From Frigoribacterium faeni (GTDB lineage: Bacteria > Actinomycetota > Actinomycetes > Actinomycetales > Microbacteriaceae): a stretch of DNA of 64,000 nt. Shown piece by piece: positions 785-59,244 of the stretch; the first letter of the stretch is position 1; the number at the start of each line of letters is the position of its first letter. The notes beneath the pieces are model-generated. The model saw only the letters and a program-made list of their open reading frames with translations. It was not told the DNA's origin and ran no database searches. The stretch spans positions 992,001 through 1,056,000 of the forward strand of contig NZ_JAAOYW010000002.1 of assembly GCF_011761235.1 (NCBI RefSeq), read 5' to 3'. The position numbers were made by a program, and so were the translations under genes.

Positions 785-854
785 CGAGGGCGGGTGTTCC
801 GGGCCGAGGGCGGGTCGGCGGCGACCCGCCCTCGGCCCGGAAGACCCGCCCTCG
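785..854. repeat. Hairpin repeat family A, copy 1 (70 bp)
   Basis: A 70-bp near-perfect palindrome with two 16-bp blocks per arm and a 6-nt loop. Each left arm holds GGGCGGGT twice, 20 bp apart, and each right arm ACCCGCC twice. Only one outer-stem position is mismatched. It lies between the sugar transporter and the alpha/beta hydrolase. Other copies are at 3174, 4279, 21395 and 29681, with a diverged relative at 26502. There is no T-tract, so it is not a canonical intrinsic terminator. Confidence 0.9.
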
Positions 855-892
855 GCTCGGCTCGGGCCCTTGCCCGACCCGCACGGGGCTCG

Positions 893-898
893 TAGGTT
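893..898 (+). promoter_or_regulatory. Predicted -10 element (TAGGTT) of the hydrolase operon
   Basis: A TAnnnT hexamer about 65 bp before the hydrolase start. It would give a leader of about 60 nt that carries a GGAAGGA Shine-Dalgarno. No clear -35 is visible. Confidence 0.4.
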
Positions 899-964
899 CA
901 GGGCAGGCCGTCGGCGTCCTCGGGCGCGGCGGACGGACCTGCCCGCCCCCTGGAAGGACCCTCG

Positions 965-1735
965 ATGGACATCCTCTTCGTGCACGGCGCCCTGGTGCGC
1001 GACGGCCAGTGGTGGTGGCGGCCGACCGCCGAGCTGATGGAGGCGCAGACCGGCGTCCGCAGCCGCTCCCTGGCCCTGCCCTCGTGCGGCGAGCGACCGG
1101 CCGACGGCCGCCGCGACACGAGCATCGGCGCGGGCGCGGGCGCGGGCGCGGTCGCGGGCGCGGACACCGCCCCCGACGCACCCGCGACGGGCCTCGTCGC
1201 CGACGCCGCCGCCCTGCGCCGGCTCCTCGACGAGACCGACGAGGCGATCGTGGTCGCGCACTCCTACGGCGGCACCGTCCTGGCCGAGGCCGGTGCGCAC
1301 CCGGCCGTGGCGCACCTCCTGCTCGTCTCGTCGTACCTGCCCGAGGTGGGGCTCTCGCAGGGAGCGGTCATGGGCGGCGAGGCCGATCCCGTGCGCATCG
1401 CCGACGCGGGCGACGGACGCCTCGGCGTCGCGGGCTACGACGCGGACTCGTTCGGGGCGCGGTTCCTGCAGGACGGCACGCCCGAGCAGCAGCGCGAGGC
1501 CTTCCGCCGCGTGACGACGCAGGACGCCGCCTCGTTCGGGACGCCCACCACCCGGGCCGGCTGGCAGGGCGTCGACTCCACCTACCTCGTCTGCGTCGAC
1601 GACCGCAGCACCTCCGTCGCCCTGCAGCGCGAGCACGCCGCGCGTGCCACGCGCTCGGTCGACCTGCCCACCGGGCACCACCCCTTCGTCACCCGGCCCG
1701 ACCTCGTCGTCGAGCAGCTGAGGGCGTTCGTGTGA
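965..1735 (+). CDS. Alpha/beta hydrolase
   Basis: A cytosolic alpha/beta-hydrolase-fold protein of 256 residues. The N-terminal FVHGAL is the oxyanion-hole HG motif. The nucleophile elbow is AHSYGG with Ser100. A catalytic histidine is in TGHHPF near residue 238, and the acid is probably in the CVDDRST strand near 211. This layout matches small esterase-like members. Residues about 50-75 are a Gly-Ala-rich low-complexity insertion ahead of the lid. The ATG is preceded by GGAAGGA. The stop overlaps the GTG of the next gene by 4 bp, so the two are translationally coupled. The substrate is not predictable. Confidence 0.85.
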   Translation: MDILFVHGALVRDGQWWWRPTAELMEAQTGVRSRSLALPSCGERPADGRRDTSIGAGAGAGAVAGADTAPDAPATGLVADAAALRRLLDETDEAIVVAHSYGGTVLAEAGAHPAVAHLLLVSSYLPEVGLSQGAVMGGEADPVRIADAGDGRLGVAGYDADSFGARFLQDGTPEQQREAFRRVTTQDAASFGTPTTRAGWQGVDSTYLVCVDDRSTSVALQREHAARATRSVDLPTGHHPFVTRPDLVVEQLRAFV

Positions 1736-2532
1736 GCGCGGCGGACCGCGGCCGCCCGACCGACGGGCGGCGCGCGAGGACCGAGGCCGAGGAGGCGGGC
1801 GCCGGCCGGGCGGGGACGTCCGGCCCCCAGGGCCCGCCGACTCCGCAGGCTCCGCTGGCCCCGGAGGCTCCGCTGACGCCGGCCCCGGCCCCGGCCCTGA
1901 CCCCGATGTCGGGGTCGACCCGCACGACGCTGGTCGCCGGCGTGCTCGTGGGGCTGTCGGCGGTGCTCGCCCTCGTCGGCCTGGCCGCCGCCTCCTCGCT
2001 GCTGCACACCGCCGGGCCCCTGCTCGCGCTCGCGGGAGCGGTGCTGCTCGTCGTGGGCGTCCGGGGCGAGACCGGGCTCGGGCGGGTCTCCGCGCTCGCG
2101 TCGGCGGGGATCGTGCTGCTCTTCGTGCCCGACGTCGTCGGACAGGCGCTGTCGTCGACCGTGCGGGAGCTCGGGCCCGACGGCGGTGCCCAGGTGCTGC
2201 TCACGGCGCTCGCCGTGCTGCGTCTCGCGTCGCTCGCGGTCGCCCTCGCGGCGGTCGTCGTGGTGCTGCGCCGACGGCTCCTCGAGCCCTGGGCACGGCG
2301 GGCCCTGGTCGCGGTGGTCGCCGTCCGGGCGTTCTTCGCCGTGCTCTCGTTCGTGCCGTCGGTCACGCTGGAGCTCGCGGTCGTCACGGCGCGCGTGGAC
2401 CTGCTCGTCCCCGTGCTGCTGCTGGCGCTGGGCGTCGCCCTGGCGCTGCACGGACGGGGCGACCGGGTGCGCGCGCGGACCGGTCGCGGGCTCGAGGCGT
2501 GGCGGTCGAGCACGGACGTCGTGCGCCGCTGA
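1732..2532 (+). CDS. Polytopic membrane protein of unknown function
   Basis: I do not recognise the family. The 266-residue protein starts at a GTG overlapping the hydrolase stop (GTGA). Residues 1-60 are a Pro/Ala-rich low-complexity segment. About six hydrophobic helices follow, with a short Arg-rich cytoplasmic tail. The lack of charged residues inside the helices gives no hint of transport. Coupling to the alpha/beta hydrolase suggests the two are co-expressed. A more internal start, such as the ATG of the MSGSTR segment, is possible because the N-terminal stretch is weakly constrained. Confidence 0.7.
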   Translation: MSAADRGRPTDGRRARTEAEEAGAGRAGTSGPQGPPTPQAPLAPEAPLTPAPAPALTPMSGSTRTTLVAGVLVGLSAVLALVGLAAASSLLHTAGPLLALAGAVLLVVGVRGETGLGRVSALASAGIVLLFVPDVVGQALSSTVRELGPDGGAQVLLTALAVLRLASLAVALAAVVVVLRRRLLEPWARRALVAVVAVRAFFAVLSFVPSVTLELAVVTARVDLLVPVLLLALGVALALHGRGDRVRARTGRGLEAWRSSTDVVRR

Positions 2533-2579
2533 CCGCGGTCGCCGAGCTACGGCCGACGCGACGCGGCAGGGCCCGCGCA

Positions 2580-2640
2580 GTGCGGCCCGTGCGGCAGGGC
2601 CCGTGCGGCAGGCCCCGTGCGGCAGGCCCCGTGCGGCTCG
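2580..2640. repeat. Short tandem repeat with GTGCGGCAGG core
   Basis: About four imperfect units of 14-15 bp, each containing GTGCGGCAGG, lie in the gap before the GNAT gene. They do not encode a conserved product. This looks like slippage-prone intergenic DNA. Confidence 0.7.
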
Positions 2641-2694
2641 GGCCGCCCGGCGGGACCCGGTCTGCGACGATGTCGTGAGAGCGAGAGGACCCGC

Positions 2695-3165: not shown

Positions 3166-3173
3166 CCCCGGCT

Positions 3174-3243
3174 CGAGGGCGGGTGTTCCGGGCCGAGGGC
3201 GGGTCGGCGGCGACCCGCCCTCGGCCCGGAAGACCCGCCGTCG
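3174..3243. repeat. Hairpin repeat family A, copy 2 (70 bp)
   Basis: Same 70-bp length, two-block arms and GGCGGC loop as copy 1. The last block reads CCGTCG instead of CCCTCG, adding one mismatch. It begins 9 bp after the GNAT stop codon, before the DUF805 gene on the same strand. Confidence 0.9.
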
Positions 3244-4278: not shown

Positions 4279-4348
4279 CGAGGGCGGGTGTTCCGGGCCG
4301 AGGGCGGGTCGGCGGCGACCCGCCCTCGACCCGGAAGACCCGCCGTCG
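4279..4348. repeat. Hairpin repeat family A, copy 3 (70 bp)
   Basis: A 70-bp copy between the convergent ends of the DUF805 gene and the histidine kinase gene. It differs from copy 1 at two right-arm positions. A bidirectional terminator role is possible here but is not supported by the tandem-gene copies. Confidence 0.9.
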
Positions 4349-7720: not shown

Positions 7721-7896
<176 letters not shown>

Positions 7897-7950
7897 GGCC
7901 GTGCGGCCGCCGCCGCGCCGGGCCGCCCCCGGCGCCGCACCGCCCCGAGA

Positions 7951-8008
7951 CACCGGCGAGTGAACGGGACACCGCCCACTGACTCGGTGTTCCGTTCACT
8001 CGGCGGTG
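7951..8008. repeat. Hairpin repeat family F, copy 1 (58 bp)
   Basis: Arms of 24 bp start CACCGGCGAGTGAACGG and close with CCGTTCACTCGGCGGTG, with two mismatches and a loop of about 10 nt. A second copy of the same 58-bp length is at 8484. The two bracket the small membrane-protein gene at 8124. Confidence 0.85.
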
Positions 8009-8111
8009 CCCGGCGGCGGGGCGGAGGGTGCGGCGGTGCCCGGCGGCGGCGGGGGCGGAGGGCGCGGGCGTGTGCCTCCTCCTGGGACTGGGGGAGCCGA
8101 CCCGCGCCTCC

Positions 8112-8423: not shown

Positions 8424-8483
8424 GCCGCATCGCCGCCGCCGTCGCTGCCGGTGCGCCGCGCTGCCGCACCCTTCCCCCTCCGA

Positions 8484-8541
8484 CACCGCCGAGTGGACCA
8501 TCCACCGCCGTAGTGGGCGGTGTTCCGTTCACTCGGCGGTG
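8484..8541. repeat. Hairpin repeat family F, copy 2 (58 bp)
   Basis: It has the same length and right arm as copy 1 (CCGTTCACTCGGCGGTG), but the left arm has diverged in the middle, reading GAGTGGACCATCCACCG. The stem is therefore partly broken. It lies in the 333-bp gap after the small membrane protein. Confidence 0.75.
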
Positions 8542-8616
8542 TCGGACGGCGGGGGAGGCGCGGGCCGGGCAAGCAGGCGCGCGTGCCGGGCGGGTGCACG
8601 GCAGGCGCCGAGCACG

Positions 8617-12285: not shown

Positions 12286-12422
12286 TTCAGGACGCATGCT
12301 CCTGAATGAGGAAGATGCCTCTCGCGATTCAGGAACGCGGCGCGGGCCGCTCCTGGACCGTGCACGGTCCAGGACTCGCAGTCCCCGCGTCGCGCGGATC
12401 AGGACTCATGTTCCTGAATGAG
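12286..12422. repeat. Hairpin repeat family E, copy 1 (compound)
   Basis: A short hairpin, TTCAGGA...TCCTGAA around GCATGC (12286-12306), is followed by a long element (about 12321-12422) rich in TTCAGGA and TCCTGAA boxes with a central GTGCAC. It ends CAGGACTCATGTTCCTGAATG, shared with the copy at 46473. It fills the divergent region between the exporter and the GNAT gene, ending 18 bp before the GNAT start. Confidence 0.8.
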
Positions 12423-14900: not shown

Positions 14901-14981
14901 GCAAATGCCGACCACGGGCGCCGCAATACGGGGATATCGAGTCGTTGTAGAGCGCACCCAGCGCAGATGGTCGGCATTTGC
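14901..14981. repeat. Hairpin repeat family D, copy 1 (81 bp)
   Basis: Perfect 14-bp end arms, GCAAATGCCGACCA and its reverse complement, enclose a 53-nt centre containing CCGCAATACGGGGATATCG. Copy 2 begins 51 bp further on. The two lie in the 381-bp gap between the 56-aa protein and the deoR-like gene. Confidence 0.88.
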
Positions 14982-15032: not shown

Positions 15033-15113
15033 GCAAATGCCGACCGAGGACGCTGCAATACGGGGATATCGCGGTGTTGCAGAGCGCATCCGTTGGACAC
15101 GGTCGGCATTTGC
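15033..15113. repeat. Hairpin repeat family D, copy 2 (81 bp)
   Basis: Same 81-bp length and end arms (13 bp perfect) as copy 1, and the same GCAATACGGGGATATCG core. Here a second inner stem is formed by CTGCAATAC and GTGTTGCAG around the GATATC. The central block is conserved between copies more than pairing alone would require. Confidence 0.88.
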
Positions 15114-21394: not shown

Positions 21395-21464
21395 CGAGGG
21401 CGGGTCTTCCGGCCCGAGGGCGGGTCCGCGACGACCCGCCCTCGGCCCGGAACACCCGCCCTCG
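21395..21464. repeat. Hairpin repeat family A, copy 4 (70 bp)
   Basis: Located between the converging ends of the permease and the LD-carboxypeptidase. It has the 70-bp two-block structure with loop CGCGAC. The outer stem has TCTTCC on the left and GGAACA on the right, a single mismatch at the same position as copy 1 but with the sides exchanged. Confidence 0.9.
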
Positions 21465-22557: not shown

Positions 22558-22613
22558 CGAGCGGTCGGAAGGGGTCGTCGCGGGAGGCCCGGGGAGCCGG
22601 AGCCGACCACTCG
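22558..22613. repeat. Hairpin repeat family C, copy 5 (56 bp, partly decayed)
   Basis: It begins CGAGCGGTCGG and ends CCGACCACTCG over exactly 56 bp, as in the other family C copies. The inner stem is mismatched. It lies 17 bp before the end of the tetR-like gene and 43 bp beyond the LD-carboxypeptidase promoter. Confidence 0.7.
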
Positions 22614-24544: not shown

Positions 24545-24604
24545 GAACCACGTTCCGTTCAAAGAACCACCGTGCTTCGTGGTTCTTTGAACGGAACGTG
24601 GTTC
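24545..24604. repeat. Hairpin repeat family G (60 bp)
   Basis: Perfect 26-bp arms, beginning GAACCACGTTCCGTTC, with an 8-nt loop. It lies between the end of ald and the promoter of the SOS gene. It is clearly AT-richer than family A and has a single copy in the window. Confidence 0.9.
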
Positions 24605-26501: not shown

Positions 26502-26571
26502 GTGCGGCGGGTCGCCGTGCTCCCGGGCGGGTGGGCGCGGACCCGCCGCCGACGACGGCGACCCGCCGACA
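26502..26571. repeat. Diverged family A-like hairpin (70 bp)
   Basis: GGCGGGT at 26506 and 26526 and ACCCGCC at 26541 and 26561 repeat the spacing of family A, including the 20-bp offset between boxes. The sequence between the boxes is unlike family A but still pairs in its outer part (CGCCGT with ACGGCG). The GGCGGGT boxes appear to be the conserved core. Confidence 0.65.
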
Positions 26572-28842: not shown

Positions 28843-30386
28843 GCTTCGACGCGCGCGAGCCCGGCACCCCCGTGGCGACGTGGCGCTCCGACCCGCGCTG
28901 GGCCGCGCTGCCCGCCCCGCGACCGCTCGACCCCGCGACCGCGCCCGAGGCCGCCGAGCCCGACGCGCCCGGTCCCGTCGACCTGGTGGGCGCCTCCGGG
29001 CCGGTCGTCGTGCTCGCCGCGCACGCCGACGACGAGACCCTCGGCGCCGGATCGCTCGTGGCGCAGCTCGTGCGCCACGGCCGACCCGTGACGGTCGTCG
29101 TGGTGACCGACGGCGCCGCCTCGCACCCCCGCTCGACGACGACCTCGGCCGGGTCGCTCCGCGAGCTGCGGCTGGTCGAGGCCCGCCGGGCCCTCGACGA
29201 GCTCGGCACCGGGATCGAGCTCGTCGCCCTCGGCGTCGCCGACGGCGCGGTCCGCGAGGCCCGCGACGAGGTCCGCGGCCGTGTGGCGGCGCTGCTCGCC
29301 GAGCGGGCTCCCGTGCTCGTCGTGGCCCCGTGGCGCGGCGACGGCCACCGCGACCACCGGGTGCTCGGCGAGGTGGCCGCGGAGCTCGTGGGAGGCGCCG
29401 GGTCCGTCCTGCCGGACGCCCGCCTCCTCGAGTACCCGATCTGGATGTGGCACTGGGGCTCGCCCGACCACGCCGACGTGCCCTGGCCGACGCTCGTGCG
29501 CGTCGCCGGGGACGAGGAGGCGGGCCTCGCGAAGCAGCGCGCGCTCGCGCGGTACGCCTCCCAGGTGCAGCCGCTCGGCGACGGGCCGGGCGACGAGGCC
29601 GTGCTGCGGCCGGACTTCGTCGAGCACTTCGTCGGCGGCGACGAGGTCTTCGTCGAGGCGCCCGCCGCCGCCGCCCTCGCCGAGGGCGGGTCTTCCGGCT
29701 CGACGGCGGGTCGCGCCGGACCCGCCCTCGACCCGGAAGACCCGCCGTCGAGGGAGCCGGAGCGCGAGCTCGCCTCGGAGCCCGCGCTCGCGCCCGCCTT
29801 CGACGCGACGCACGCCCGCCGCGACGACCCGTGGGGCGTCACCACCCGCTGGTACGAGCGGCGCAAGCGCGCGCTCGTGCTCGCCGCGCTGCCCGACGAG
29901 CGGCTCGGCCGCGTGCTCGAGATCGGCTGCTCGATCGGCGTCGTCACCGAGCAGCTCGCGGGGCGGGCCGACTCCGTGCTCGCCCTCGACGTCTCGTCGG
30001 TCGCGGTCGAGCGCGCCCGCGAGCGGCTGGCCGACCGTCCGCACGTCCGCGTCGAGGTCGCCGACGTCTCGGCCGGGCTGCCCGACGGCGAGCAGGACCT
30101 GGTCGTGCTCGGCGAGGTCGGCTACTACCTGTCGCCCGCGGCCCTCGGGCAGCTGCTCGCCGACGTCGACCGGCGGCTCGCCCCGGGCGGGTCCCTCGTG
30201 GCCTGCCACTGGCGGCACGGCGCCGACGACTTCGCGCAGGACGGCGACGAGGTGCACGAGGCGCTCGCCGCCTGGGCCCGCACGGCCGGGCTGACCCGCG
30301 TCGTCGGCCACGTCGAGGAGGACTTCCTGCTCGACGTCTGGTCGCGCGACCCGCGCTCGGTCGCGACGCGGACGGGCCTGCGGTGA
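28839..30386 (+). CDS. PIG-L deacetylase / SAM methyltransferase fusion
   Basis: A bifunctional protein of 515 residues. The N-terminal half is PIG-L/LmbE: VVLAAHADDETLGAG gives the AHxDDE zinc motif and VVAPWRGDGHRDHRVLGE the downstream H-x2-H site. Residues about 281-304 are encoded by a complete family A hairpin read in frame, forming part of the interdomain linker. The C-terminal half is a class I methyltransferase of the NodS/SAM type: VLEIGCSIGVVTEQLA (motif I), ADVSAGLPDGEQDLVVLGEVGYYLS. Such fusions remove an N-acyl group from an amino sugar and methylate a product. Start GTG 28839 overlaps the previous stop (GTGA). Confidence 0.88.
   Translation: MSFDAREPGTPVATWRSDPRWAALPAPRPLDPATAPEAAEPDAPGPVDLVGASGPVVVLAAHADDETLGAGSLVAQLVRHGRPVTVVVVTDGAASHPRSTTTSAGSLRELRLVEARRALDELGTGIELVALGVADGAVREARDEVRGRVAALLAERAPVLVVAPWRGDGHRDHRVLGEVAAELVGGAGSVLPDARLLEYPIWMWHWGSPDHADVPWPTLVRVAGDEEAGLAKQRALARYASQVQPLGDGPGDEAVLRPDFVEHFVGGDEVFVEAPAAAALAEGGSSGSTAGRAGPALDPEDPPSREPERELASEPALAPAFDATHARRDDPWGVTTRWYERRKRALVLAALPDERLGRVLEIGCSIGVVTEQLAGRADSVLALDVSSVAVERARERLADRPHVRVEVADVSAGLPDGEQDLVVLGEVGYYLSPAALGQLLADVDRRLAPGGSLVACHWRHGADDFAQDGDEVHEALAAWARTAGLTRVVGHVEEDFLLDVWSRDPRSVATRTGLR
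29681..29750. repeat. Hairpin repeat family A, copy 5, inside a coding region (70 bp)
   Basis: This copy has the same length and block structure as the intergenic ones. It lies between the two domains of the PIG-L/methyltransferase fusion and is open in the reading frame, giving a Gly/Ser/Pro-rich stretch. Both arms carry GAGGGCGGGT or GACGGCGGGT. At 70 bp (not a multiple of 3) its insertion would shift the frame unless flanking bases were also changed. Confidence 0.88.
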
Positions 30387-35965: not shown

Positions 35966-36022
35966 CGAGTTGCCCCGAATGGTCGCTCCCTGACGCGCGG
36001 GGCGACCATCCGGGGCAACTCG
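35966..36022. repeat. Hairpin repeat family H (57 bp)
   Basis: Arms begin CGAGTTGCCCCGAATGGTCG and close with CGACCATCCGGGGCAACTCG; two positions are G-T type mismatches. It lies between the convergent ends of the surface-protein and lipid-kinase genes. Single copy in the window. Confidence 0.85.
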
Positions 36023-40058: not shown

Positions 40059-40116
40059 GTGAGCCGTCACGAACGGCTCTTCCCGGGGCAGGGAAGAGCC
40101 GTTCGTGACGGCTCAC
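40059..40116. repeat. Hairpin repeat family B, copy 1 (58 bp)
   Basis: Perfect 26-bp arms starting GTGAGCCGTCACGAACGGCT, with a 6-nt loop. It lies between the convergent ends of the membrane protein and the GH92 gene. Copies are at 46329 and 56920. Confidence 0.92.
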
Positions 40117-40156
40117 GAGGCACGGGCCAGGGGCAGGCAGCCCCAGGACAGAAGGA

Positions 40157-40190
40157 GGCGGCCCCCGCCCCGGTGGGGGAGGGGGCCGCC
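40157..40190. terminator. GC-rich hairpin at the 3' end of the GH92 gene
   Basis: GGCGGCCCCC (40157-40166) pairs with GGGGGCCGCC (40181-40190), with further inner C/G pairing. It is 37 bp beyond the GH92 stop. There is no T-run, so terminator function is only likely. Confidence 0.45.
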
Positions 40191-40226
40191 TGCTGCAGCA
40201 CCGGTCGGGCGCCCGCGGGGGTCGCC

Positions 40227-43200: not shown

Positions 43201-46100
43201 GGCTCGGCGAAGGCGCCGTCGGCGTCGCGCGCCTGGAAGAAGCCGGTCGCCGGGTCGAACAGCGTGCCGTAGTCGCGGGCGCGGTCGAGCAGCCAGGCCG
43301 ACTCCTCCCTCAGCTGCCCGCGCCGCGCCTCCGGGGTCGCGGGGTCGTCGGCGAGCTTCGCCGCCATCTGCCCGAGGCCGAAGTCGTTGATGTGGCCTTC
43401 GAGGCCCCACGAGACGCTCTCGCCGGTGCTCGACGGCGTCCAGCCGAGGAACAGCGACTGGTCGAGGCCCTTGCGCCCGACGCCGCTCTGGGTCGGCTGC
43501 ACGCTCGCGTTCTTGAGCGCCGCGTCGTACGCCTCGAGCGCGAGGTCGCCGTCGACGGCGCCCTTCACGTAGGCGTCGGCGAACGCGACGTCCGAGCTCG
43601 TGCCCGTCATCAGGTCGGCGTAGCCGGGGCTCGACCAGCGCGCGATCCAGCCGGCGTCGCGGTACTGCTGCACGAAGCCGTCCATGAGGCGGCTCGCCAC
43701 CTCGGGGTAGAGCAGCGAGTAGGCGGGCCAGACGGTGCGGTAGGTGTCCCAGAAGCCGTTGTTGACGTAGACCTCGCCGTCCATCACCTGCGCGTTGGTC
43801 GTCGTGTCCGTCGCGGCGCCCTGGGTCGGGGCGACCGGGCTCGCGTACCGGTTGACCGGCGCGGCGGCGGTGCCCGTGTTCTCGAACTGCGAGTTCGGGA
43901 ACATGTTCAGGCGGTACAGGCTGCCGTAGAGCGTCGCGAGCTGGTCGTCGCGGGCGCCCTCGACCGTGACCACGCCGAGGCGGTCGTTCCACTGGCGCTC
44001 GGCCGCCTCGCGCACCTCGTCGAAGCTGCGGCCGGTCACCTCGAGGTCGAGGTTGCGGGTCGCCTGCTCGGACGAGATGAACGAGGTCGCCAGCCGCAGC
44101 TCGACCACGCCCGCGGGGCTGCCCGCGCTCGCCGCGGAGGCGTCGAACGAGGCGTACTGCGCGCCTGCCCGGTCGCCGGCGGCGGCGCCCACGGAGGTGG
44201 GCGTGCGGTCGAACCGACCGCTCACGAACATGCGGGTCGCCCCGACCGAGAGGCCGGAGCCGCCCTCGACCCAGCCGGAGACCCGGCCGTCGGCCGAGAC
44301 GCTCAGGCCCGAGGTGCCCGCGACGCGGTCGACGAGCACGCTGCCGGTGCGCGCGTCGGGGTCCGTGCCCTTAGGGAAGGCGAACCGCAGCACGGCGCCG
44401 TGGTCGGTCGGCGTGACGGCGGCCTCGAGGCCGCTGGTGGTCGCCACGCTGTAGAGGTCGGGGCGCGCGATCTCGGCCCCGTGGTCGAACTGGAGGGCCC
44501 GGGTGGTGAGCGAGGCGTCGGGCGCACCCGCGCCTCCTGCGGTCGCGGCCGTCGTCGACGGCAGGATCGCGAGCTGGTTCCGGTCGCCCATCCACGGGCT
44601 CGGCTCGTGCGAGACGCCGATGCCCTGCAGGCGGGGCAGGTTCGCGTCGTCGTTGCCGCGCTGGTAGTCGTACAGCCAGCTCTGGCTCGACGCGTTCGTC
44701 ATCGGGGTCCAGAAGTTGAAGCCGTTCGGCACCGTGGCCGCCGGCACGTTGTTGCCGCGGCTGAAGCCGCCGGTCGAGTTCGTGCCCCGCCGGGTGTCGA
44801 CGTAGTTCACGAGGCTCGAGCCGTCGACCCGCGCGGGGGCGGGGTCGAGGTCGAGGTCGTCGACCCAGCCCTGGAACCGGGTGCCGACCGCGCCGCCGGC
44901 GTTGTCGTAGTCGAACAGGACGCGCGTCACGGTCTCGCCGGCGAGGTCGCCGAGGGGCACCCGCACCGAGTTCCACTGGTCGGCGTAGAGGATCTTCGAG
45001 CTGCCGCGGTCGGCGGCCGAGGCGCCCTCGCCGTGGGAGTCGACGATGCCCTCGACGCCGTTCACCGTGCGGCCGCTGGCCAGCTCGAGGTCGATCGCGG
45101 CGTAGGTGGCGGGGTACTGCAGGTCGCCGCCCAGCTCGGGGAAGATCTTGTACGAGAACTCGGTGTCGTCGCCGATCTCGAGCTCGAGGTCCTCGAACAG
45201 CACGTTCGTGGCCCGGCCCTCCGCGGCCGTGTGCTCGCCCGCGTAGCGCAGCGACTTGGTGCCGCTGAAGCCCGCGCCGGGCTTCATGTTCGGGCCGCTG
45301 ACCGGGCCGCCGCCGACCACGGTCACCATCGGGCCGGCCTCGGGCACGGCGTCGGTGCCGTCGCCGAGCGACCAGTCGGCGAGCTGGGTGAGGCTCCCGC
45401 CCGCGTTGGCGGTGATGTCGAGGCGGTAGGCGTCGTAGGCCGCCGGCGCCGCGACGGCGTACTCGTTCGTCGCGCCGCGGCCCGTGAAGGCGACCGCGGG
45501 CTGCACGTCGAGGTCGACCCAGTTGACGCCGCCGTCCGCGGAGCCCTGCAGGGTCACCGCGCGGGGGTCGCGCTCGGGGGCGTCGTTGCCGCTGGTGAGC
45601 GACCACTCGGTCGCCCTCTGGGGCGAGTCGAGCAGGTAGGTGATCGTCGCGGTGCGCTGGAACGCGAGCCACTTGCTCGCCGGGTTGCCGTCGGTGAGGT
45701 TGACGGCGATCTCGCCGGGGGCGTTCTCCGCGCTCGCGGAGGCCTTCGTCACGTGGCCGAGCAGGCTGCCCGGCGGCAGGCCGTTCGAGGCCTTCACGGT
45801 GCCGAGGTCGTCAGGGGTGGCGGGCGTGCTCGCGAGGGGCTGCGCGTCGTCCGCCTCGAAGCTGGTGCGCCAGTCGTCGCCGAGCACGGCCGCCGCGCGG
45901 GCGTCGCCGGAGCCGGCGCGCCCGGCTGAGCCAGCGGCGCCGGCCGAGCCGGCCGCGTTCGCCGGGGAGACGCCGACGAGGGCGCCGGTCGCCGCCAGGG
46001 CGGTCGCGGTCAGGATCACCCCCGCCCGCTGTGTCCGATCCCTCCAGCGAGCTGAGGCTCGCTGCTGTCGTTCGGCCTGGTGGGGTCGAGCTGACGCCAT
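40227..46100 (-). CDS. GH92 alpha-mannosidase, large cell-wall-anchored enzyme
   Basis: A 1,957-residue secreted exo-alpha-mannosidase. After a signal peptide (about 26-50) come F5/8-type carbohydrate-binding regions (LTDGNPASKWLAFQ; WSLTSGNDAPERDPRAVTL), then the GH92 core starting VNYVDTRRGTNSTGGFSRGNNVPAATVPNGFNFWTPMT, with MNGEVYVNNGFWDTYRT-like and SHHIPYISAANG blocks. Further C-terminal F5/8, NEW3-like and PKD-like domains precede a collagen-like PGTPGQ linker. The C-terminus is LAYTG, a helix and RRRRRRH, a class E sortase signal. It should trim mannose from yeast or fungal mannan or N-glycans outside the cell. An operator-like palindrome lies upstream. Confidence 0.93.
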   Translation of the reverse strand: MASARPHQAERQQRASARWRDRTQRAGVILTATALAATGALVGVSPANAAGSAGAAGSAGRAGSGDARAAAVLGDDWRTSFEADDAQPLASTPATPDDLGTVKASNGLPPGSLLGHVTKASASAENAPGEIAVNLTDGNPASKWLAFQRTATITYLLDSPQRATEWSLTSGNDAPERDPRAVTLQGSADGGVNWVDLDVQPAVAFTGRGATNEYAVAAPAAYDAYRLDITANAGGSLTQLADWSLGDGTDAVPEAGPMVTVVGGGPVSGPNMKPGAGFSGTKSLRYAGEHTAAEGRATNVLFEDLELEIGDDTEFSYKIFPELGGDLQYPATYAAIDLELASGRTVNGVEGIVDSHGEGASAADRGSSKILYADQWNSVRVPLGDLAGETVTRVLFDYDNAGGAVGTRFQGWVDDLDLDPAPARVDGSSLVNYVDTRRGTNSTGGFSRGNNVPAATVPNGFNFWTPMTNASSQSWLYDYQRGNDDANLPRLQGIGVSHEPSPWMGDRNQLAILPSTTAATAGGAGAPDASLTTRALQFDHGAEIARPDLYSVATTSGLEAAVTPTDHGAVLRFAFPKGTDPDARTGSVLVDRVAGTSGLSVSADGRVSGWVEGGSGLSVGATRMFVSGRFDRTPTSVGAAAGDRAGAQYASFDASAASAGSPAGVVELRLATSFISSEQATRNLDLEVTGRSFDEVREAAERQWNDRLGVVTVEGARDDQLATLYGSLYRLNMFPNSQFENTGTAAAPVNRYASPVAPTQGAATDTTTNAQVMDGEVYVNNGFWDTYRTVWPAYSLLYPEVASRLMDGFVQQYRDAGWIARWSSPGYADLMTGTSSDVAFADAYVKGAVDGDLALEAYDAALKNASVQPTQSGVGRKGLDQSLFLGWTPSSTGESVSWGLEGHINDFGLGQMAAKLADDPATPEARRGQLREESAWLLDRARDYGTLFDPATGFFQARDADGAFAEPADTYDPESWGGAYTETNGWNFAFHAPFDVPGLAALYGGSEGLDAKLAEFYGTPEEADKPGGYGGVIHEMVEARDVRIGQLGMSNQVSHHIPYISAANGDPATTQEVVREITQRLFVGSEIGQGYPGDEDNGEMSSWFLFSALGFYPLAMGTDSYTIGSPLFDAATIHLENGKDFTVRAEGNSNDAVYVQSATLDGEALDTASLSQQSINRGGELTFRMGEQPSGWAAHAPEAADPAATLVDATTAGQGVLSASDVTDVARLADDSASTSATFDLPDADVTWRSASGPVTVSRYTLTNGAQGTSSPTGWTLEGSTDGTTWLPLDERTAQTFPSALQTRPFTVTDPRPFTWYRIATTGTGDGRAATLSEIELMADPTAPAGAFTLTGKPGLTSEAGASFESAVATLTRASSADGTDGTDAGAVPEGLTATVDWLDGDGPQPATLTPTALGGWDVTAPARVFDAPATYTAIVTAQDGTDSATTTASVVVSRTAPSSTDAFDSVCLGEPGQAANCDYLDAGFSRPSLAGKGFVQGETVEVPGTALSFDLPAVPAGEPDNATGQGQVLPLDLGDDVTQLSVIGTATEKPQQTVGTLTFDDGTTQQLPIEFGDWTGGVTTPSFGNIVVATSDGRTRGANGSDTTVAGVYSTAPVTLPEGKRAVSLTLPTQTGDPRSAGRIHVFAIATDGTRLAPPEALVATGAEAGLAGTAGTEVSGALATVTGGVGDAAGSGDAAGPGVSALVNWGDGTALTPGTIVDGVVSGAHTYALAGSYTVTVTVDDGRSSAAATTTAVIAAAPVDPGPGPGTPGDPGTPGQPGTPGTPGQPGTPGQPGTPGDPGTVWTPSISVLADSATRGTVVPVDGNGFAPGEQVTLTLFSDPIALGTLTADADGIVRGSFTVPADATTGAHEVEALGATSQVAVRAAFEVVDTAPADAGRAPLRPGSYDGSLAYTGGDRDQAVDAGLVGGVLLAAGGLVLALEAARRRRRRHEVAAR

Positions 46101-46183
46101 CGTCGTTCTCCTGCGGGTGATCCCGTGATCTGGGTGGGGCCGCTCAGTAGCGGCCGCGCATGACGGGGTACACGTGTCGTCGA

Positions 46184-46197
46184 TGACAGCGCCGTCA
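46184..46197. promoter_or_regulatory. LacI-type operator candidate upstream of the GH92 gene
   Basis: TGACAGCGCCGTCA, a 14-bp inverted repeat with one mismatched pair and a central GC, as in many LacI-family sugar regulators. It lies 84 bp before the GH92 start. Confidence 0.4.
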
Positions 46198-46328
46198 GCT
46201 CGTCATTCCTATCGGCAGCGTGGCCCCCGGTCAAGGGGCATCCACTGGTCGCGGGGTACAGGTGACGGGTCTCGGCTGCGGGCTGCCGCCTCCTCGTCTG
46301 CCCTCCTCGCCGTCGCGCGGACCGTCGC

Positions 46329-46386
46329 GCGAGCCGTCACGAACGGCTGCTCAGGGCGTCGCGAGCAGCCGTTCGTGACGGTTCAC
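46329..46386. repeat. Hairpin repeat family B, copy 2 (58 bp)
   Basis: It has the same GAGCCGTCACGAACGGCT left arm and 58-bp length. The inner stem has changed to GCTC/GAGC and the outer right side to GGTTC, leaving one G-T mismatch. Loop about 10 nt. It lies upstream of the GH92 gene. Confidence 0.88.
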
Positions 46387-46472: not shown

Positions 46473-46568
46473 TTCAGGAATCACGGCGCGGGCTGTCCTG
46501 ATCCGTGCACGGTTCAGGACGCCCGCTCCCCCCGCGACGCGATGCAGGACTCATGTTCCTGAATGAGG
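46473..46568. repeat. Hairpin repeat family E, copy 2
   Basis: It contains GATTCAGGAA, TCCTGATCCGTGCACGG, TTCAGGAC and CAGGACTCATGTTCCTGAATG in the same order as the copy at 12321. The ends pair (TTCAGGAA with TTCCTGAA). It stops 15 bp before the NmrA-gene stop codon. Confidence 0.8.
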
Positions 46569-47577: not shown

Positions 47578-47631
47578 GAACCGACGAGAAAGGCTCCTCA
47601 CGCACGCGTGAGGAGCCTTTCGCGTCGGTTC
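47578..47631. repeat. Hairpin repeat family I (54 bp)
   Basis: 26-bp arms beginning GAACCGACGAGAAAGGCTCC, one mismatch, 2-nt loop. It is 25 bp beyond the stop of rnj and 90 bp upstream of the NmrA start, so it may end rnj transcription. The CTTTCG after the stem on the minus strand is not a proper T-tract. Single copy in the window. Confidence 0.85.
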
Positions 47632-49690: not shown

Positions 49691-49746
49691 CGAGCGGTCA
49701 GTTCGGGTCGCTCGGGCCGCCGGGGACGACCCGAACCGACCACTCG
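49691..49746. repeat. Hairpin repeat family C, copy 1 (56 bp)
   Basis: CGAGCGGTCAGTTCGGGTCG pairs with CGACCCGAACCGACCACTCG with two mismatches around a 16-nt loop. The loop and about 40 bp after the hairpin (CCCTGGGTGCCAGCCCCGCT) are shared with copy 2 at 50276. Compared with copy 2 one stem pair is G-C instead of C-G. Confidence 0.9.
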
Positions 49747-49790: not shown

Positions 49791-49865
49791 CCTCGTTCAG
49801 GAAGCTCGGTCCTGATCCGCGCGGCGGGGAGACCCGCAGTCCTGAGTCGTGCACGGTTCAGGAAC
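49791..49865. repeat. Hairpin repeat family E, copy 3 (75 bp, inverted orientation)
   Basis: It starts CCTCGTTCAGGAA and ends GTGCACGGTTCAGGAAC, with CCTGATCC and TCCTGAGTC between. It matches the reverse complement of the copy at 46473 over most of its length but is shorter. Confidence 0.7.
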
Positions 49866-49938
49866 TGTGCCCCGTGCCCTCCTGAGCCGGCGCAGTCAGC
49901 CGACGGAGGCGTCGGTCCCGTCGGCGGGGCCAGGCCCG

Positions 49939-50275: not shown

Positions 50276-50331
50276 CGAGTGGTCAGTTCCGGTCGCTCGG
50301 GCCGCCGGGGACGACCGGAACCGACCACTCG
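50276..50331. repeat. Hairpin repeat family C, copy 2 (56 bp)
   Basis: CGAGTGGTCAGTTCCGGTCG pairs with CGACCGGAACCGACCACTCG with one mismatch. It abuts the broken end of the GNAT remnant. A partial extra right end (CCGACCACTCGG) follows at about 50345. Confidence 0.9.
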
Positions 50332-55662: not shown

Positions 55663-56955
55663 ATGACCGACAGCACGAGCGCCCCCGACCCCCGCCTCCT
55701 CGACGACCGCATCGAGGCGGTCTTCGGGCCCCTGGTCGACGACGTCGCGGCCGGCGCCGTCGCCCGCGAACGGGACCGCCGCCTGCCCGTGGACGAGGTC
55801 GACCGGCTGCGCCGGGCCGGCTTCGGGGCCCTGCGGGTGCCGGCCGAGCACGGCGGCTGGGGCGCGTCCCTGGAGCAGGAGTTCCGTCTCCTCGTCCGGC
55901 TCGGCGCGGCCGACTCGAACCTGCCGCAGCTGCTGCGGGGGCACGTGGCGTTCGTCGAGACGCAGCGGGCCCAGCCCGACGGGCCGCTCCGCACCGAGTG
56001 GCTGACGCGGCTCGCGGCCGGCGACGTGCTCGTCGGCAACGCGCAGGCCGAGCGGGGCGACGCGACCGCCGTCACGACCCGGCTGACCGAGGTCGACGGC
56101 CGCCTGCGCCTCGACGGCCGCAAGTTCTACAGCACGGGCACCCTCTACGCCGACTGGATCTGGGTCGGGGCGCTGCGCGGCGACGAGCCCGTCGCGCTCG
56201 CGGTGCGCGCCGACGCCCCGGGCGTCACCCGCGTCGACGACTGGGGCGGCTTCGGGCAGCGGCTCACCGGCAGCGGCACGACCGTCTTCGACGACGTCGA
56301 GGTCGACCCGCGCCAGGTGCTGCCGTGGAGCGACAACGCCGAGCGCCGCCCCCTCGCCTACACGCAGGCGCTCTACCAGCTCGTCCTGCTCGCGACGCAG
56401 AGCGGCATCGCCCGGGCCGTGCTGCGCGACGCCGTCGACTTCGTCCGGCCGCGCACCCGCACCTTCGGCGTCGCCGGCGTCTCGCTGCCCCGGGAGGACC
56501 CGCTCGTGCAGGGCGTCGTCGGCCGGCTGTCGAGCATCGCGTCGGCGGTCGAGGCGGTCACGCTGTCGGCGGTGCGGGCGCTGGAGGCGGCGGACCGGCG
56601 GGCGGGGGAGGCGGCGGACGCCGTGGGCGGTGCGGGAGCCCTGGGTGCGGCGGGCGCGTCGGGTACTGGGGATCCCGACGAGGGGTACCAGGAGGCGCTC
56701 GCCACGGTCTTCGAGGCGCAGCAGGTCGTCCTGCCGCTCGTGCTCGAGGCGGCGACCGCCCTGTTCGAGGTGGGAGGCGCCTCCGCGGTGGACTCGGACC
56801 GGGCCCTCGACCGGCACTGGCGGAACGCCCGGACCATCGCGTCGCACAACCCCGCCGTGCACCGCGAGCGGGCGCTGGGCGACCGGCGCCTCAACGGCAC
56901 CCCCTTCCGCACCGGCCCCGTGAGCCGTCACGAACGGCTCCTCCTGCCGTCGTGA
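55663..56955 (+). CDS. SfnB/DszC-like flavin-dependent monooxygenase (acyl-CoA dehydrogenase fold)
   Basis: A 430-residue member of the acyl-CoA dehydrogenase superfamily. FGALRVPAEHGGWGASLEQEFRLLVRLGAADSNLPQLLRGHVAFVE, FYSTGTLYADWIWVGA and the C-terminal DRHWRNARTIASHNPAVHRERALGDRRLNG match the SfnB/DszC group, FMN-dependent monooxygenases that release sulfur from sulfones or thiophenes. Divergence from metNIQ through a common palindrome supports a role in sulfur scavenging; inference. A low-complexity insert is at about 325-345. The last 11 residues and the stop codon lie in a family B hairpin. AAAGGAG precedes the ATG. Confidence 0.85.
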   Translation: MTDSTSAPDPRLLDDRIEAVFGPLVDDVAAGAVARERDRRLPVDEVDRLRRAGFGALRVPAEHGGWGASLEQEFRLLVRLGAADSNLPQLLRGHVAFVETQRAQPDGPLRTEWLTRLAAGDVLVGNAQAERGDATAVTTRLTEVDGRLRLDGRKFYSTGTLYADWIWVGALRGDEPVALAVRADAPGVTRVDDWGGFGQRLTGSGTTVFDDVEVDPRQVLPWSDNAERRPLAYTQALYQLVLLATQSGIARAVLRDAVDFVRPRTRTFGVAGVSLPREDPLVQGVVGRLSSIASAVEAVTLSAVRALEAADRRAGEAADAVGGAGALGAAGASGTGDPDEGYQEALATVFEAQQVVLPLVLEAATALFEVGGASAVDSDRALDRHWRNARTIASHNPAVHRERALGDRRLNGTPFRTGPVSRHERLLLPS

Positions 56956-56977
56956 CCAGCCGTTCGTGACGGCTCAC
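56920..56977. repeat. Hairpin repeat family B, copy 3, overlapping a gene end (58 bp)
   Basis: Perfect 20-bp arms GTGAGCCGTCACGAACGGCT and complement, 58 bp in total with an unmatched centre. The left arm encodes the last residues of the SfnB-like protein (VSRHERLLLPS) and the TGA stop lies in the centre. Confidence 0.9.
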
Positions 56978-57027: not shown

Positions 57028-57033
57028 TAGCGT
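57028..57033 (+). promoter_or_regulatory. Predicted -10 element (TAGCGT)
   Basis: TAGCGT 27 bp before GTG 57061. Confidence 0.45.
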
Positions 57034-57060
57034 GGCGGGACGTCACCGAGGGGGTACACC

Positions 57061-57288
57061 GTGAACACCGCGACCGTCGTCATCGTCCTGTTCCTGCTCG
57101 CCATCGCCGCGGCCACCGTCGCGATCATGCTGCGCGACCGGCGGGACCGGGCGCTCGCCGCGAAGCTCGACGACGCCGACCCGGGGGCCGGGGTCCGGGC
57201 GCAAGCCGACGCCGAGCGCGGACAGGCCGGAGCCCGGGGCCAGGCCGGCGGCGCGTCGTGGTCGGGCGCCGACCAGAACTCGGCCTGA
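57061..57288 (+). CDS. Small single-helix membrane protein (75 aa)
   Basis: A short protein with one N-terminal helix (TVVIVLFLLAIAAATVAIML, about 5-24), a basic RDRRDR stop-transfer, and a hydrophilic Ala/Gly/Asp tail. No family recognised. The GTG is preceded by GAGGGGG and by a promoter-like hexamer. It is probably a membrane-anchored small protein. Confidence 0.6.
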   Translation: MNTATVVIVLFLLAIAAATVAIMLRDRRDRALAAKLDDADPGAGVRAQADAERGQAGARGQAGGASWSGADQNSA

Positions 57289-57369
57289 CCCGACCTCCTG
57301 ACCCGACCTCTCGTGGCCGGGCCCGGTCTCACCGGCCCGACCCGCGCCTCCTCGGCCTGGGCAGGCGGT

Positions 57370-57425
57370 CGAGTGGTCGGCCCCGGCCCCTCCCGGCCCC
57401 GCCGACCGCGCATCCTGACCACTCG
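57370..57425. repeat. Hairpin repeat family C, copy 4 (56 bp, decayed)
   Basis: Ends CGAGTGGTCGG and CTGACCACTCG are kept at exactly 56 bp but the inner stem no longer pairs well. It occupies the 309-bp gap before the phosphate transporter gene. Confidence 0.75.
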
Positions 57426-57482
57426 GCGCCCGCGCCGGCACCCGCGCCCACACCGGCACACCCACCCTGCACGCACTGCACA

Positions 57483-57527
57483 ATTCGCCTGCTGTTCACC
57501 GACGCGGCCACGCTCCCGGCCTAGCGT
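57483..57527 (+). promoter_or_regulatory. pit promoter with a possible PHO box
   Basis: ATTCGCC (57483-57489) and GTTCACC (57494-57500) are 11 bp apart, the period of Streptomyces PhoP direct-repeat units (GTTCACC). They end 21 bp before TAGCGT (57522-57527), where an activator would overlap the -35. The leader would be about 63 nt. Confidence 0.45.
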
Positions 57528-57596
57528 CGCCCGTGCAGGAGCGCGCCCGTCACCGTGACGGCCCCCGGGCCCCCGCAGAGCTGAGGGGCAACGACG

Positions 57597-58760
57597 ATGG
57601 ACGTCTTCGTCACGGTCACGCTCGTGATCGTCGTGGCGCTCGTGTTCGACTTCACGAACGGGTTCCACGACACGGCCAACGCGATGGCCACCTCCGTCGC
57701 GACCGGGGCGCTGAAGCCGAAGGTGGCGGTGCTCATCTCGGCGGTGCTCAACCTCGTCGGCGCGTTCCTGTCGACCGAGGTCGCGAGCACGGTGTCGAAC
57801 GGGATCATCCGCGAGGGCGAGGGAGGGGTGCAGGTCACCCCGACGATGATCTTCGCCGGCCTCGTCGGCGCCGTCATCTGGAACCTCGCCACCTGGTACC
57901 TGGGCCTGCCCTCGAGCTCGTCGCACGCCCTCTTCGGCGGGCTGATCGGCGCGGCCGTGATCGGCGCGGGGGTCGGCTCGGTCGACTTCGCGGTGGTCCT
58001 CTCGAAGGTGGTGCTGCCCGCGCTCATCTCGCCCCTCGTCGCCGGGGCCGTCGCCCTCGTCGCGACCTACGCCGCGTACCGGATCACGAAGCAGGCGACG
58101 CTGCGCGGCTCGACCGCCGGGTTCCGCCACGGCCAGACGGTCAGCGCCTCGCTCGTCTCGCTCGCGCACGGCACGAACGACGCGCAGAAGACGATGGGCG
58201 TCATCACGCTCACCCTGATCGCCGCCGGCTACCAGGGAGCCGGCACCACCCCGCAGCTCTGGGTCGTCCTCGCGTGCGGCCTCGCGATCGCGCTCGGCAC
58301 CTACCTCGGCGGCTGGCGCATCATGCGCACCGTCGGCAAGCGCATCACCGACGTGCAGGCCCCTCAGGGCTTCGCGGCCGAGACGAGCTCGGCGGCGACG
58401 ATCCTCATCTCGTCGCACCTCGGCTTCGCGCTGTCGACGACGCAGGTGACGTCGGGCTCCATCGTCGGGGCGGGCCTCGGCAAGAAGCTCGCGACCGTGC
58501 ACTGGGGCGTCGTCGGCAAGATCGCCTCGGCCTGGGTGATCACGCTGCCCGCGGCCGCCCTCGTCGGCGGGGTGAGCGCCTGGATCGCCAGCACGAGCAC
58601 CCTCGGGCTCGTCGTCGTGGCCGTGCTCGCGCTGGCCGGCGGCTCCGCCCTCGTGCTGCTCGCGCGTCGCCACCCGGTGACCCACGAGACCGTCAACGAC
58701 AGCGAGGAGGCGCCCGCCGCGACCCAGCCGGCCGGCGCCTCCCGCGGACAGGGAGAGTGA
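57597..58760 (+). CDS. pit: Inorganic phosphate transporter, Pit family
   Basis: A 387-residue phosphate permease with about 10 helices, moving metal-phosphate with protons. The two duplicated signature motifs are FDFTNGFHDTANAMATSVATGAL near the N-terminus and LVSLAHGTNDAQKTMGVI in the second half. Other conserved blocks are WNLATWYLGLPSSSSHALFGGLIG and LISSHLGFALSTTQVTSGSIVGAG. The ATG has GAGGGG upstream. Its stop overlaps the next gene by 4 bp. Confidence 0.95.
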   Translation: MDVFVTVTLVIVVALVFDFTNGFHDTANAMATSVATGALKPKVAVLISAVLNLVGAFLSTEVASTVSNGIIREGEGGVQVTPTMIFAGLVGAVIWNLATWYLGLPSSSSHALFGGLIGAAVIGAGVGSVDFAVVLSKVVLPALISPLVAGAVALVATYAAYRITKQATLRGSTAGFRHGQTVSASLVSLAHGTNDAQKTMGVITLTLIAAGYQGAGTTPQLWVVLACGLAIALGTYLGGWRIMRTVGKRITDVQAPQGFAAETSSAATILISSHLGFALSTTQVTSGSIVGAGLGKKLATVHWGVVGKIASAWVITLPAAALVGGVSAWIASTSTLGLVVVAVLALAGGSALVLLARRHPVTHETVNDSEEAPAATQPAGASRGQGE

Positions 58761-59128
58761 CCGTGTTCCTCGGAGTGGACTGGGGCGCCTTCGTGGTCGT
58801 CTTCGTGGTGGCCCTCGCCGCCACCGCCGTCATCGTCACGGCCTTCGCGCTCGGCATCCGCCTGTTCGCCGCCGGGGCGACCGAGCCCGTCGCCGCGGTC
58901 GCGGGCGCTGGTGCTGGTGCTGACGCGGGATCGCTCGCTCGGGGTGCCGCCGCCGGTGCCGGCTCGTCGGACGGCGCGGCCCGGAGCGCAGGAGGCGCCG
59001 GTCGCGTCCCGACGGACCCTCGCGCCCCGCGCTCCCTCGCCGCGACCGTCGGAGGTGCGGCCTGCTTCGGGGTCGGCGTCGCCGCGGTGCTCTTCGGCCT
59101 GTGGATGATCGTTCCCCAGTTCCACTGA
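58757..59128 (+). CDS. Small membrane protein coupled to pit
   Basis: A 123-residue protein starting at a GTG that overlaps the pit stop (GTGA). Helix 1 is about 9-35 (GAFVVVFVVALAATAVIVTAFALGIRL) and helix 2 about 97-119 (LAATVGGAACFGVGVAAVLFGLWMIV); between them is an Ala/Gly-rich spacer. Similar small proteins follow pit in other Actinobacteria, so a role in phosphate uptake is plausible, but no function is known. Confidence 0.78.
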   Translation: MTVFLGVDWGAFVVVFVVALAATAVIVTAFALGIRLFAAGATEPVAAVAGAGAGADAGSLARGAAAGAGSSDGAARSAGGAGRVPTDPRAPRSLAATVGGAACFGVGVAAVLFGLWMIVPQFH

Positions 59129-59188
59129 CGCCGGTCTCGGCGGGCCGACCCGCACCTCCTCGGCTCTCCCGGGCTACTCGCGAGGGGT

Positions 59189-59244
59189 CGAGTGGTCGGT
59201 TCCGGCTCGTGCCGGGCCCTCCAAGAGCCGGGACCGACCACTCG
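59189..59244. repeat. Hairpin repeat family C, copy 3 (56 bp)
   Basis: CGAGTGGTCGGTTCCGGCTC pairs with GAGCCGGGACCGACCACTCG with one G-T mismatch and a 16-nt loop. It lies between the converging pit unit and the GlxA-type regulator. Confidence 0.9.

What the first reader, a model, noticed from the sequence alone, without database searches (positions are those of the whole stretch)
785..59244. Many families of fixed-length long hairpins fill the intergenic regions
At least nine unrelated hairpin families (A-I) occur in 64 kb: A 70 bp (785, 3174, 4279, 21395, 29681, diverged 26502), B 58 bp (40059, 46329, 56920), C 56 bp (22558, 49691, 50276, 57370, 59189), D 81 bp (14901, 15033), E about 75-103 bp (12321, 46473, 49791), F 58 bp (7951, 8484), G (24545), H (35966), I (47578). 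Copies keep exact length even when the stem has decayed. They sit in convergent, tandem and divergent gaps, lack T-tracts, and no transposase is nearby. REP/BIME-like elements are known in other bacteria, usually with one or two families per genome and a RAYT transposase. So many parallel families with strict lengths suggests a mobilising or copying system that recognises hairpin ends. I know of no description of this set in Microbacteriaceae.
Basis: partly seen in the sequence, partly recalled or inferred. Interest (0 to 1): 0.85.

Follow-up and report, generated by a model that had tools for sequence, protein, structure and literature searches.

The report
Fixed-spacing multi-box hairpins between genes
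A soil and plant bacterium and its relatives carry many families of short DNA hairpins, mostly just after genes, several of them built from identical short 'boxes' at exact distances that stay preserved while the DNA between them changes, and no enzyme that could spread them was found.

Summary
The window lies in a Frigoribacterium genome (Microbacteriaceae) and gives 17 hairpins; 30 shuffles gave 0-1. Family A has 30 places in the genome.

New here: several families share a layout. Each arm carries the same box twice, 19 or 20 bp apart: box-box-loop-box'-box'. Unrelated boxes keep this pitch, also in a Frigoribacterium genome without family A and in another genus. Family D is nearly always exactly 81 bp; family E has five boxes in fixed register.

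Boxes are held while spacers drift: in 22 orthologous A pairs (18 loci) boxes differ at 2.1% of sites, spacers and loop at 36.5%. Yet A copies in this genome resemble each other more than their orthologues (9 of 9 against the mean, 8 of 9 against the median paralogue), which suggests rewriting in place. Some copies are cleanly absent in relatives. Long hairpins avoid divergent gaps (3 of 75) and lack T-tracts.

RAYT-type transposases are absent from 16 of 16 species; rve integrases and reverse transcriptases from this genome. Best reading: REPIN-like, RAYT-independent elements whose boxes bind an unknown factor. Layout and constraint are shown; factor and copying are inferred.

The parts
785..854 (.). 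Family A element, four boxes (>><<) at 20,19,20; with flanking box bases 783-856
3174..3243 (.). Family A element; A also at the orthologous place in G012; G008 has one A in a spacer that corresponds to both 3174 and 4279
4279..4348 (.). Family A element
21395..21464 (.). Family A element; the same spacer holds another hairpin plus half an A element in G008, another hairpin plus an A element in G001, another hairpin only in G012
26502..26571 (.). Diverged A-type element (box core GGCGGGT); absent in G008 and G001
   Evidence: not found by model R1
29681..29750 (.). Family A element inside a CDS, in the linker between PIG-L and methyltransferase domains; present in G008 and G001, absent in G012 and G004
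40059..40116 (.). Family B element; a diverged B-like element stands in the orthologous gap of G008 and of G001
46329..46386 (.). Family B element
56920..56977 (.). Family B element, overlapping the 3' end of a CDS call
22558..22613 (.). Family C element, interior only partly paired
49691..49746 (.). Family C element
50276..50331 (.). Family C element
57370..57425 (.). Family C element, interior only partly paired
59189..59244 (.). Family C element; cleanly absent in G008; in G012 same outer arms and length, different interior
14901..14981 (.). Family D element, exactly 81 bp between 13-bp end boxes
15033..15113 (.). Family D element, exactly 81 bp
12328..12418 (+). Family E element, five TTCAGGA-type boxes at offsets 0,23,40,70,84
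46473..46563 (+). Family E element, same five-box register
49796..49886 (-). Family E element, same register on the other strand
7950..8009 (.). Family F element, CACC boxes at 19-bp pitch
8483..8542 (.). Family F element
24545..24604 (.). Family G element, GAACC boxes at 19-bp pitch; G with a different spacer at the same place in G008 and G012, another hairpin there in G004, none in G001
35966..36022 (.). Family H hairpin; a differently sequenced hairpin in the same spacer of G008, G001 and G012
47578..47631 (.). Family I hairpin, related to B

Best explanation
These are dispersed multi-box palindromic elements that work like REPINs but without RAYT. Shown: families are fixed-length elements; in A, F and G the same box stands twice in each arm at 19-20 bp, in E five boxes keep one register; A boxes are conserved at single loci while spacers drift, with some tendency to stay paired; most lie after genes; some are present in one species and absent in another; and A copies in this genome resemble each other more than their orthologues. 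Inferred: the boxes are binding sites for a sequence-specific factor acting in trans, which needs the sites in register; at gene 3' ends the bound element or its hairpin works as a two-way stop or insulator, which keeps boxes under selection locus by locus; new copies come from rare copying or ectopic conversion between elements, with RAYT, rve-type and RT enzymes excluded for this genome and host recombination the simplest candidate.
For: Arm-internal repeat: 41 of 75 arms score 7 or more, 37 of them at 19 or 20 bp; shuffled arms give 6.4 in all and about 0.5 at 19/20. A boxes (up to 1 mismatch) in 1.66 Mb of Frigoribacterium: 87 distinct multi-box clusters, 74 >><< at 20,19,20, 12 shorter or longer in the same register, 1 with an extra site; no >< pair. 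In one 344-kb own sample all 34 exact A boxes lie in elements, none alone. Orthologous A pairs: 22 pairs at 18 loci, boxes 20 of 968 differ, spacers plus loop 209 of 572; in the 6 pairs with no member from the arm-selected loci, 5 of 264 against 58 of 156. Spacer pairing 70.0% against 55.8% when partners are shuffled between elements (200 shuffles, maximum 59.5%); 28 two-sided compensated changes. Own-genome similarity: orthologue farther than mean own paralogue in 9 of 9, against 0 of 8 (G012), 0 of 4 (G008), 4 of 12 (G001). Family G: own 7 of 7 spacers begin TTC, including 24545, where G008 and G012 have AACCAT. Context: divergent gaps hold 2 of 38 (own) and 1 of 37 (G008) long intergenic hairpins though 48 of 162 and 44 of 154 spacers are divergent. 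E: 45 copies in one register; element strand same as tandem genes in 6, opposite in 7 of 13. Same pitch with other boxes in G005, G015 and another genus, G028.
Against: No box-binding protein was identified. B, C, H and I show no 19/20 direct repeat at score 7. One-sided spacer breaks (58 cells) outnumber compensated changes (28) of 198 cells. Ascertainment: A elements entered with at most 5 and partners with at most 8 box mismatches of 44, so strongly decayed partners count as absent (27 of 78 raw rows have no A); one half element is seen in G008. Own-genome similarity is by a small margin in three of nine comparisons (7 against 5.9, 6.1 and 6.8) and holds in 8 of 9 against the median paralogue; independent gains at the same spacer would give the same picture. 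F in the own genome is not homogenised: it holds two types. Some own flanks share 25-35 bp similarity. Long hairpins in called CDS: 3 own, 9 G008.
Confidence: 0.42

Rival explanations
1. Purely selfish miniature elements (MITE or REPIN type) mobilised by a transposase not tested here or since lost; the boxes are its binding sites, two or more per end as in transposon ends with several binding sites (recalled).
For: Inverted ends with repeated boxes, A copy number 0 to about 48 among species, clean absences at orthologous places, tandem extension of boxes by 20-bp units.
Against: No clear target-site duplication: exact 2-mers 3 against 5.75 expected, 3-mers 2 against 0.55, longer none, shared 6-mers 3 against 3.3, in 85 rows of which 8 are off-register or decayed. 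No Y1_Tnp in 16 of 16 genomes; no rve or RVT_1 in the own genome; other transposase families not tested. A boxes stay intact at orthologous loci while spacers drift.
Confidence: 0.27
2. Intrinsic transcription terminators without a U-tract, whose sequence similarity comes from gene conversion among them.
For: Position close after stop codons and avoidance of divergent gaps; spacer pairing partly kept with compensated changes. Hairpin termination without a necessary poly-U trail is described in print (PMC8355165: abstract and section headings seen).
Against: Termination by a stem does not need an invariant box sequence or a 19/20 pitch; a copy lies inside a CDS; E is asymmetric and lies in either orientation.
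Confidence: 0.2
3. Chromosome-architecture or replication-linked binding sites (nucleoid or segregation sites) that tolerate only 3'-end positions.
For: Regular multi-site geometry; regional unevenness: A is absent from own C1:1-890 kb (0 of 30 places) and thin in G008 0.9-2.23 Mb (5 of 47).
Against: Several unrelated boxes in one genome; turnover between species of 87% identity; G008 density does not simply follow distance from dnaA.
Confidence: 0.08

Closest known systems
REPINs (inverted REP doublets with RAYT; PMC3116915, passages seen)
   Same: Conserved sequences in inverted orientation, variable spacer of fixed length that keeps pairing with compensatory changes, extragenic, several families per genome
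   Different: Here arms of A, F and G carry the box twice at 19-20 bp (five boxes in E); no RAYT found in the genus; no GTAG tag; A boxes tested at orthologous loci and conserved
CGTC-tagged REPs and Rickettsia RPE (PMC3733652, passages seen)
   Same: Short palindromes mostly downstream of genes, some inside ORFs, no dedicated transposase known
   Different: No consistent CGTC tag (one end in 9 of 39 long own hairpins, both ends in none); nested box pitch; the word Actinobacteria does not occur in that paper
Intrinsic terminators without poly-U and hairpin clusters (PMC8355165, abstract and section headings seen)
   Same: Hairpins close after stop codons, no poly-U
   Different: Sequence families with invariant boxes and fixed register
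MITEs (features recalled)
   Same: Short non-coding elements with inverted ends, variable presence
   Different: No clear target duplication; boxes plus free spacers of fixed length rather than a remnant of a transposon

Membership tests
REPIN | Conserved inverted sequences with a variable, paired, fixed-length spacer | tested here: met
   family A:
REPIN | RAYT (Y1_Tnp, PF01797) encoded in the genome | tested here: not met
   0 of 16 Frigoribacterium genomes; the control search rings in 5 of 14 genomes
REPIN | GTAG tag at the stem end | tested here: not met
   0 of 39 long own hairpins
CGTC REP | CGTC at one end | tested here: not met
   one end in 9 of 39 long own hairpins
MITE | Terminal inverted repeats | tested here: met
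MITE | Target-site duplication | tested here: not met
   family A only: nothing above 3 bp; 3-mers 2 against 0.55 expected
MITE | Related autonomous transposon in the genome | tested here: inconclusive
   PF01797, PF00665 and PF00078 absent from own genome; other families not searched; among Frigoribacterium clusters only one lone A arm, a half element in G008
Intrinsic terminator | Stem followed by T-tract | tested here: not met
   5 or more T in 8: 0 of 39 long own, 0 of 46 long G008
Intrinsic terminator | Position at gene 3' ends | tested here: met
Intrinsic terminator | RNA 3' ends at the stem | not testable with these tools
   no RNA data
Known RNA family (Rfam) | Match over gathering score | tested here: not met
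   0 matches in the window

The most novel reading that the evidence does not exclude
A class of small dispersed DNA elements in Microbacteriaceae, in which a conserved machine reads several identical boxes at a fixed 19-20 bp pitch while the box sequence itself is free to change from family to family, and new variants sweep through existing loci of a genome, implying either a diversifying set of binding proteins or a single programmable one, and a copying process that writes into existing copies rather than only into empty sites.
Probability: 0.25. Interest if true: 0.92.

Novelty: new variant of a known kind. Interest (0 to 1): 0.77.

Why it matters
REP-like repeats are usually explained by RAYT. 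Here several multi-copy families share a geometric rule, and the best-sampled one shows selection on its boxes at single loci and signs of in-place rewriting, in a genus where no RAYT was found. That makes two open questions testable in one organism: what non-RAYT process spreads palindromes, and why hairpins after bacterial genes keep their sequence.

Tried and rejected
RAYT as driver: rejected for this genus. Target-site duplication: none clear. Phage carriage: the exact A arm has 0 matches in viral contigs. Known RNA family: none. Simple ori-to-ter gradient: not clean. Lone A boxes as single operators: none exact in the 344 kb; single hits with up to one mismatch occur (214 in the 1.68 Mb) and look like chance. 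Single-unit palindromes (><): none. Hairpins in 14 stretches of 20 kb from 7 genomes of other families of the order: 9 hairpins, none with a 19/20 repeat at score 7, one at 22 bp; four stretches asked from two further genomes did not exist. The A model in 120 Microbacteriaceae genomes (85 genera) hits 6 genomes of 4 genera, with stricter filters than in the smaller searches; the single hit in G131 is a 40-bp hairpin without the layout, that in G140 has a 19-bp repeat with another box. A loose regular expression for family G found nothing; one search replaced it. The F list contains two wrong entries (a B-like and an A-like row), so no count rests on it. The E control has only one random spacing (0 hits). 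Print: the listings show no paper whose title or shown abstract start describes such elements in Frigoribacterium or Microbacteriaceae; the papers listed were not opened, and only open-licence papers are held. Searches were used to find the three papers cited.
Full report
WHAT WAS CHECKED. An ungapped palindrome scan gives 17 hairpins (score 16 or more) in the window, one of them a poly-G/poly-C stretch and one a coding palindrome; with the poly-G stretch removed it gives 17, against 0 in 26 and 1 in 4 of 30 Markov shuffles.

WHERE IT IS. The window is C2:992001-1056000 of a 3.2 Mb genome in five contigs. The genus is therefore Frigoribacterium, Microbacteriaceae.

COPY NUMBER. A covariance model of A has 60 hits on two strands, 30 places, in the own genome; the B model 31 hits at 17 places, one of them family I. 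Among 16 Frigoribacterium genomes the A hits range from 0 (four genomes) to 97; in G008 93 hits make 47 places. Nine genomes of other families of the order have none.

THE SHARED LAYOUT. I looked for a repeat inside each arm. Of 75 arms of 25 nt or more (own and four relatives), 41 contain a direct repeat with score 7 or more, and in 37 of these the offset is 19 (20 arms) or 20 (17 arms); shuffled arms give 6.4 in all and about 0.5 at 19/20. So these elements read box-x-box-loop-box'-x'-box'. The 37 arms are not independent: they fall in ten of the sequence clusters, with different boxes. In own C2:852-1196 kb 23 of 41 arms and in 360 kb of G008 14 of 46 have the repeat at 19/20; these sets overlap the first. 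For A the consensus box is GY-CGAGGGCGGGT-C, four times at 20-bp pitch with 6-nt spacers (84 elements). In 1.66 Mb of Frigoribacterium, 87 distinct multi-box clusters were found: 74 exactly >><< at 20,19,20, 12 shorter or longer in the same register (up to four boxes in an arm), 1 with an extra site 27 bp away (the first count had 92 clusters, with two loci of other genera and repeats of the same stretch). Much of this sequence was fetched because it holds an A arm.

OTHER FAMILIES. D is 81 bp in 20 of 24 end-to-end pairs of about that size (the others 80, 82, 82 and 72), with a mostly variable interior. F and G have CACC and GAACC boxes at 19 bp. B, C, H and I have fixed length but no such direct repeat.

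BEYOND FAMILY A. In the loci examined of G003, G006, G007 and G010 the A-type elements share the core GGCGGGT at 20-bp pitch, without the rest of the box. G005, without A hits, has hairpins with other boxes at 19 bp (GAACCACC, GAGACCCC; 2 of 3 arms), G015, with 2 weak A hits, one more (CACACCCC; 1 of 4), and G028 of another genus has GGCGGGTG at 20 bp (4 of 10 arms) and others at 19 bp (2 of 10). G140 has 1 of 3; G030, G038 and G045 gave 5 hairpins in 100 kb, none at 19/20. G028 and one G140 stretch were chosen around A-model hits, so their density is not a fair sample.

BOXES HELD, SPACERS FREE. Orthologous A copies were found by matching both flanks. In 22 distinct pairs at 18 loci boxes differ at 20 of 968 positions, spacers plus loop at 209 of 572. 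In the 6 pairs with no member from the arm-selected loci it is 5 of 264 against 58 of 156. Random, non-orthologous pairs differ by 0.93 of 44 in boxes and 12.1 of 26 in spacers plus loop. The entry rule (at most 5, partner at most 8 mismatches of 44) trims heavy decay. Spacers stay paired more than expected (70.0% against 55.8%), with 28 compensated two-sided changes and 58 one-sided breaks among 198 cells.

TURNOVER AND REWRITING. Own hairpins against the G008 orthologous spacer: 9 same family (facing 6 G008 elements), 6 another hairpin, 14 none, 12 not assessable; reverse 6, 9, 17, 16 (genes at 87% identity). 'None' means no hairpin of score 14, so it is an upper bound: it includes a poly-G stretch and coding palindromes, and two own B rows face a diverged B-like element. 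Clean absences seen in alignments: 59189 in G008, 26502 in G008 and G001, 24545 in G001, and 29681 in G004; for 29681 G012 closes up as well. Own A copies differ by 5.1 of 26 from each other but by 7-13 from orthologues, farther than the mean own paralogue in 9 of 9 and than the median in 8 of 9 comparisons, on seven own elements; among comparisons without the own genome this holds in 0 of 8 for G012, 0 of 4 for G008 and 4 of 12 for G001. Three of the nine margins are small. Family G points the same way: own 7 of 7 spacers begin TTC, while G008 (3 of 3), G012, G001 and one of two G004 copies have an xxCCAT spacer, including G008 and G012 at the locus of 24545. In F the two own copies at 7950 and 8483 are of a CACCGC type that none of 11 relative rows has in all four boxes, but other own F copies are of the relatives' CACCCC type. 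The simplest account is that existing elements were overwritten by copies of a newer variant; separate gains at the same spacer are not excluded.

CONTEXT. Long intergenic hairpins: own 23 convergent, 13 tandem, 2 divergent (3 more in CDS); G008 15, 21, 1 (9 more in CDS); spacers of 100 bp or more are divergent in 48 of 162 and 44 of 154. With short hairpins included, 35 of 54 (own) and 42 of 54 (G008) lie within 60 bp of the nearest facing gene end. T-tracts are absent after long hairpins. E lies in both orientations to tandem genes, 6 same and 7 opposite, which favours a DNA-level over an RNA-level role, for E at least. Gene calls are my own codon-usage calls.

MACHINERY. Y1_Tnp absent in 16 of 16 genomes; rve absent in own, G008 and G012, one in G001; RVT_1 absent in own and G001, one each in G008 and G012. 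Other recombinases were not searched. The exact A arm is absent from viral contigs.

READING. Layout, constraint on A boxes, 3'-end placement and turnover are shown; rewriting is the best account. A box-binding factor, its role as a two-way stop, and conversion-type copying are inference. The elements work like REPINs (PMC3116915, passages: conserved ends, paired variable spacers of fixed length) but fail the RAYT and GTAG tests, so they are not filed as REPINs. Listings of the held open-licence papers show no description in Frigoribacterium or Microbacteriaceae.

Noticed in passing
window 7733-7861 (also own C2 967693 and 1182539): Poly-G followed by poly-C stretches of 57-123 bp; two lie within about 100 bp of F elements, the third 1.2 kb from an A element. 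They may be sequencing or assembly artefacts at strong hairpins.
   Followed up: no
window and 14 own stretches: AGGAGGCGCGG occurs 96 times exactly in 344 kb, 73 of them with no other copy within 120 bp; related 10-mers are about 2-4 times denser in spacers than in coding sequence. It may be a separate motif.
   Followed up: partly
own C2 941417-942185 and 1182473-1183069; L010 3443-3842: F elements cluster, twice mixed with G; in L010 F and G stand 7 bp apart, twice, as if forming composite units.
   Followed up: no
own C1:1-890 kb; G008 0.9-2.23 Mb: Large regions with no or few A elements (0 of 30; 5 of 47 places).
   Followed up: partly
window 40059-46386: A 5.8 kb ORF (40227-46019) stands between two B elements; G008 and G001 lack the ORF and have a single diverged B-like element in its place, as if the ORF had been lost or gained by recombination between B copies.
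   Followed up: partly
window 29681-29750: The hairpin is read through in a 516-aa ORF that joins PIG-L and methyltransferase domains.
   Followed up: partly
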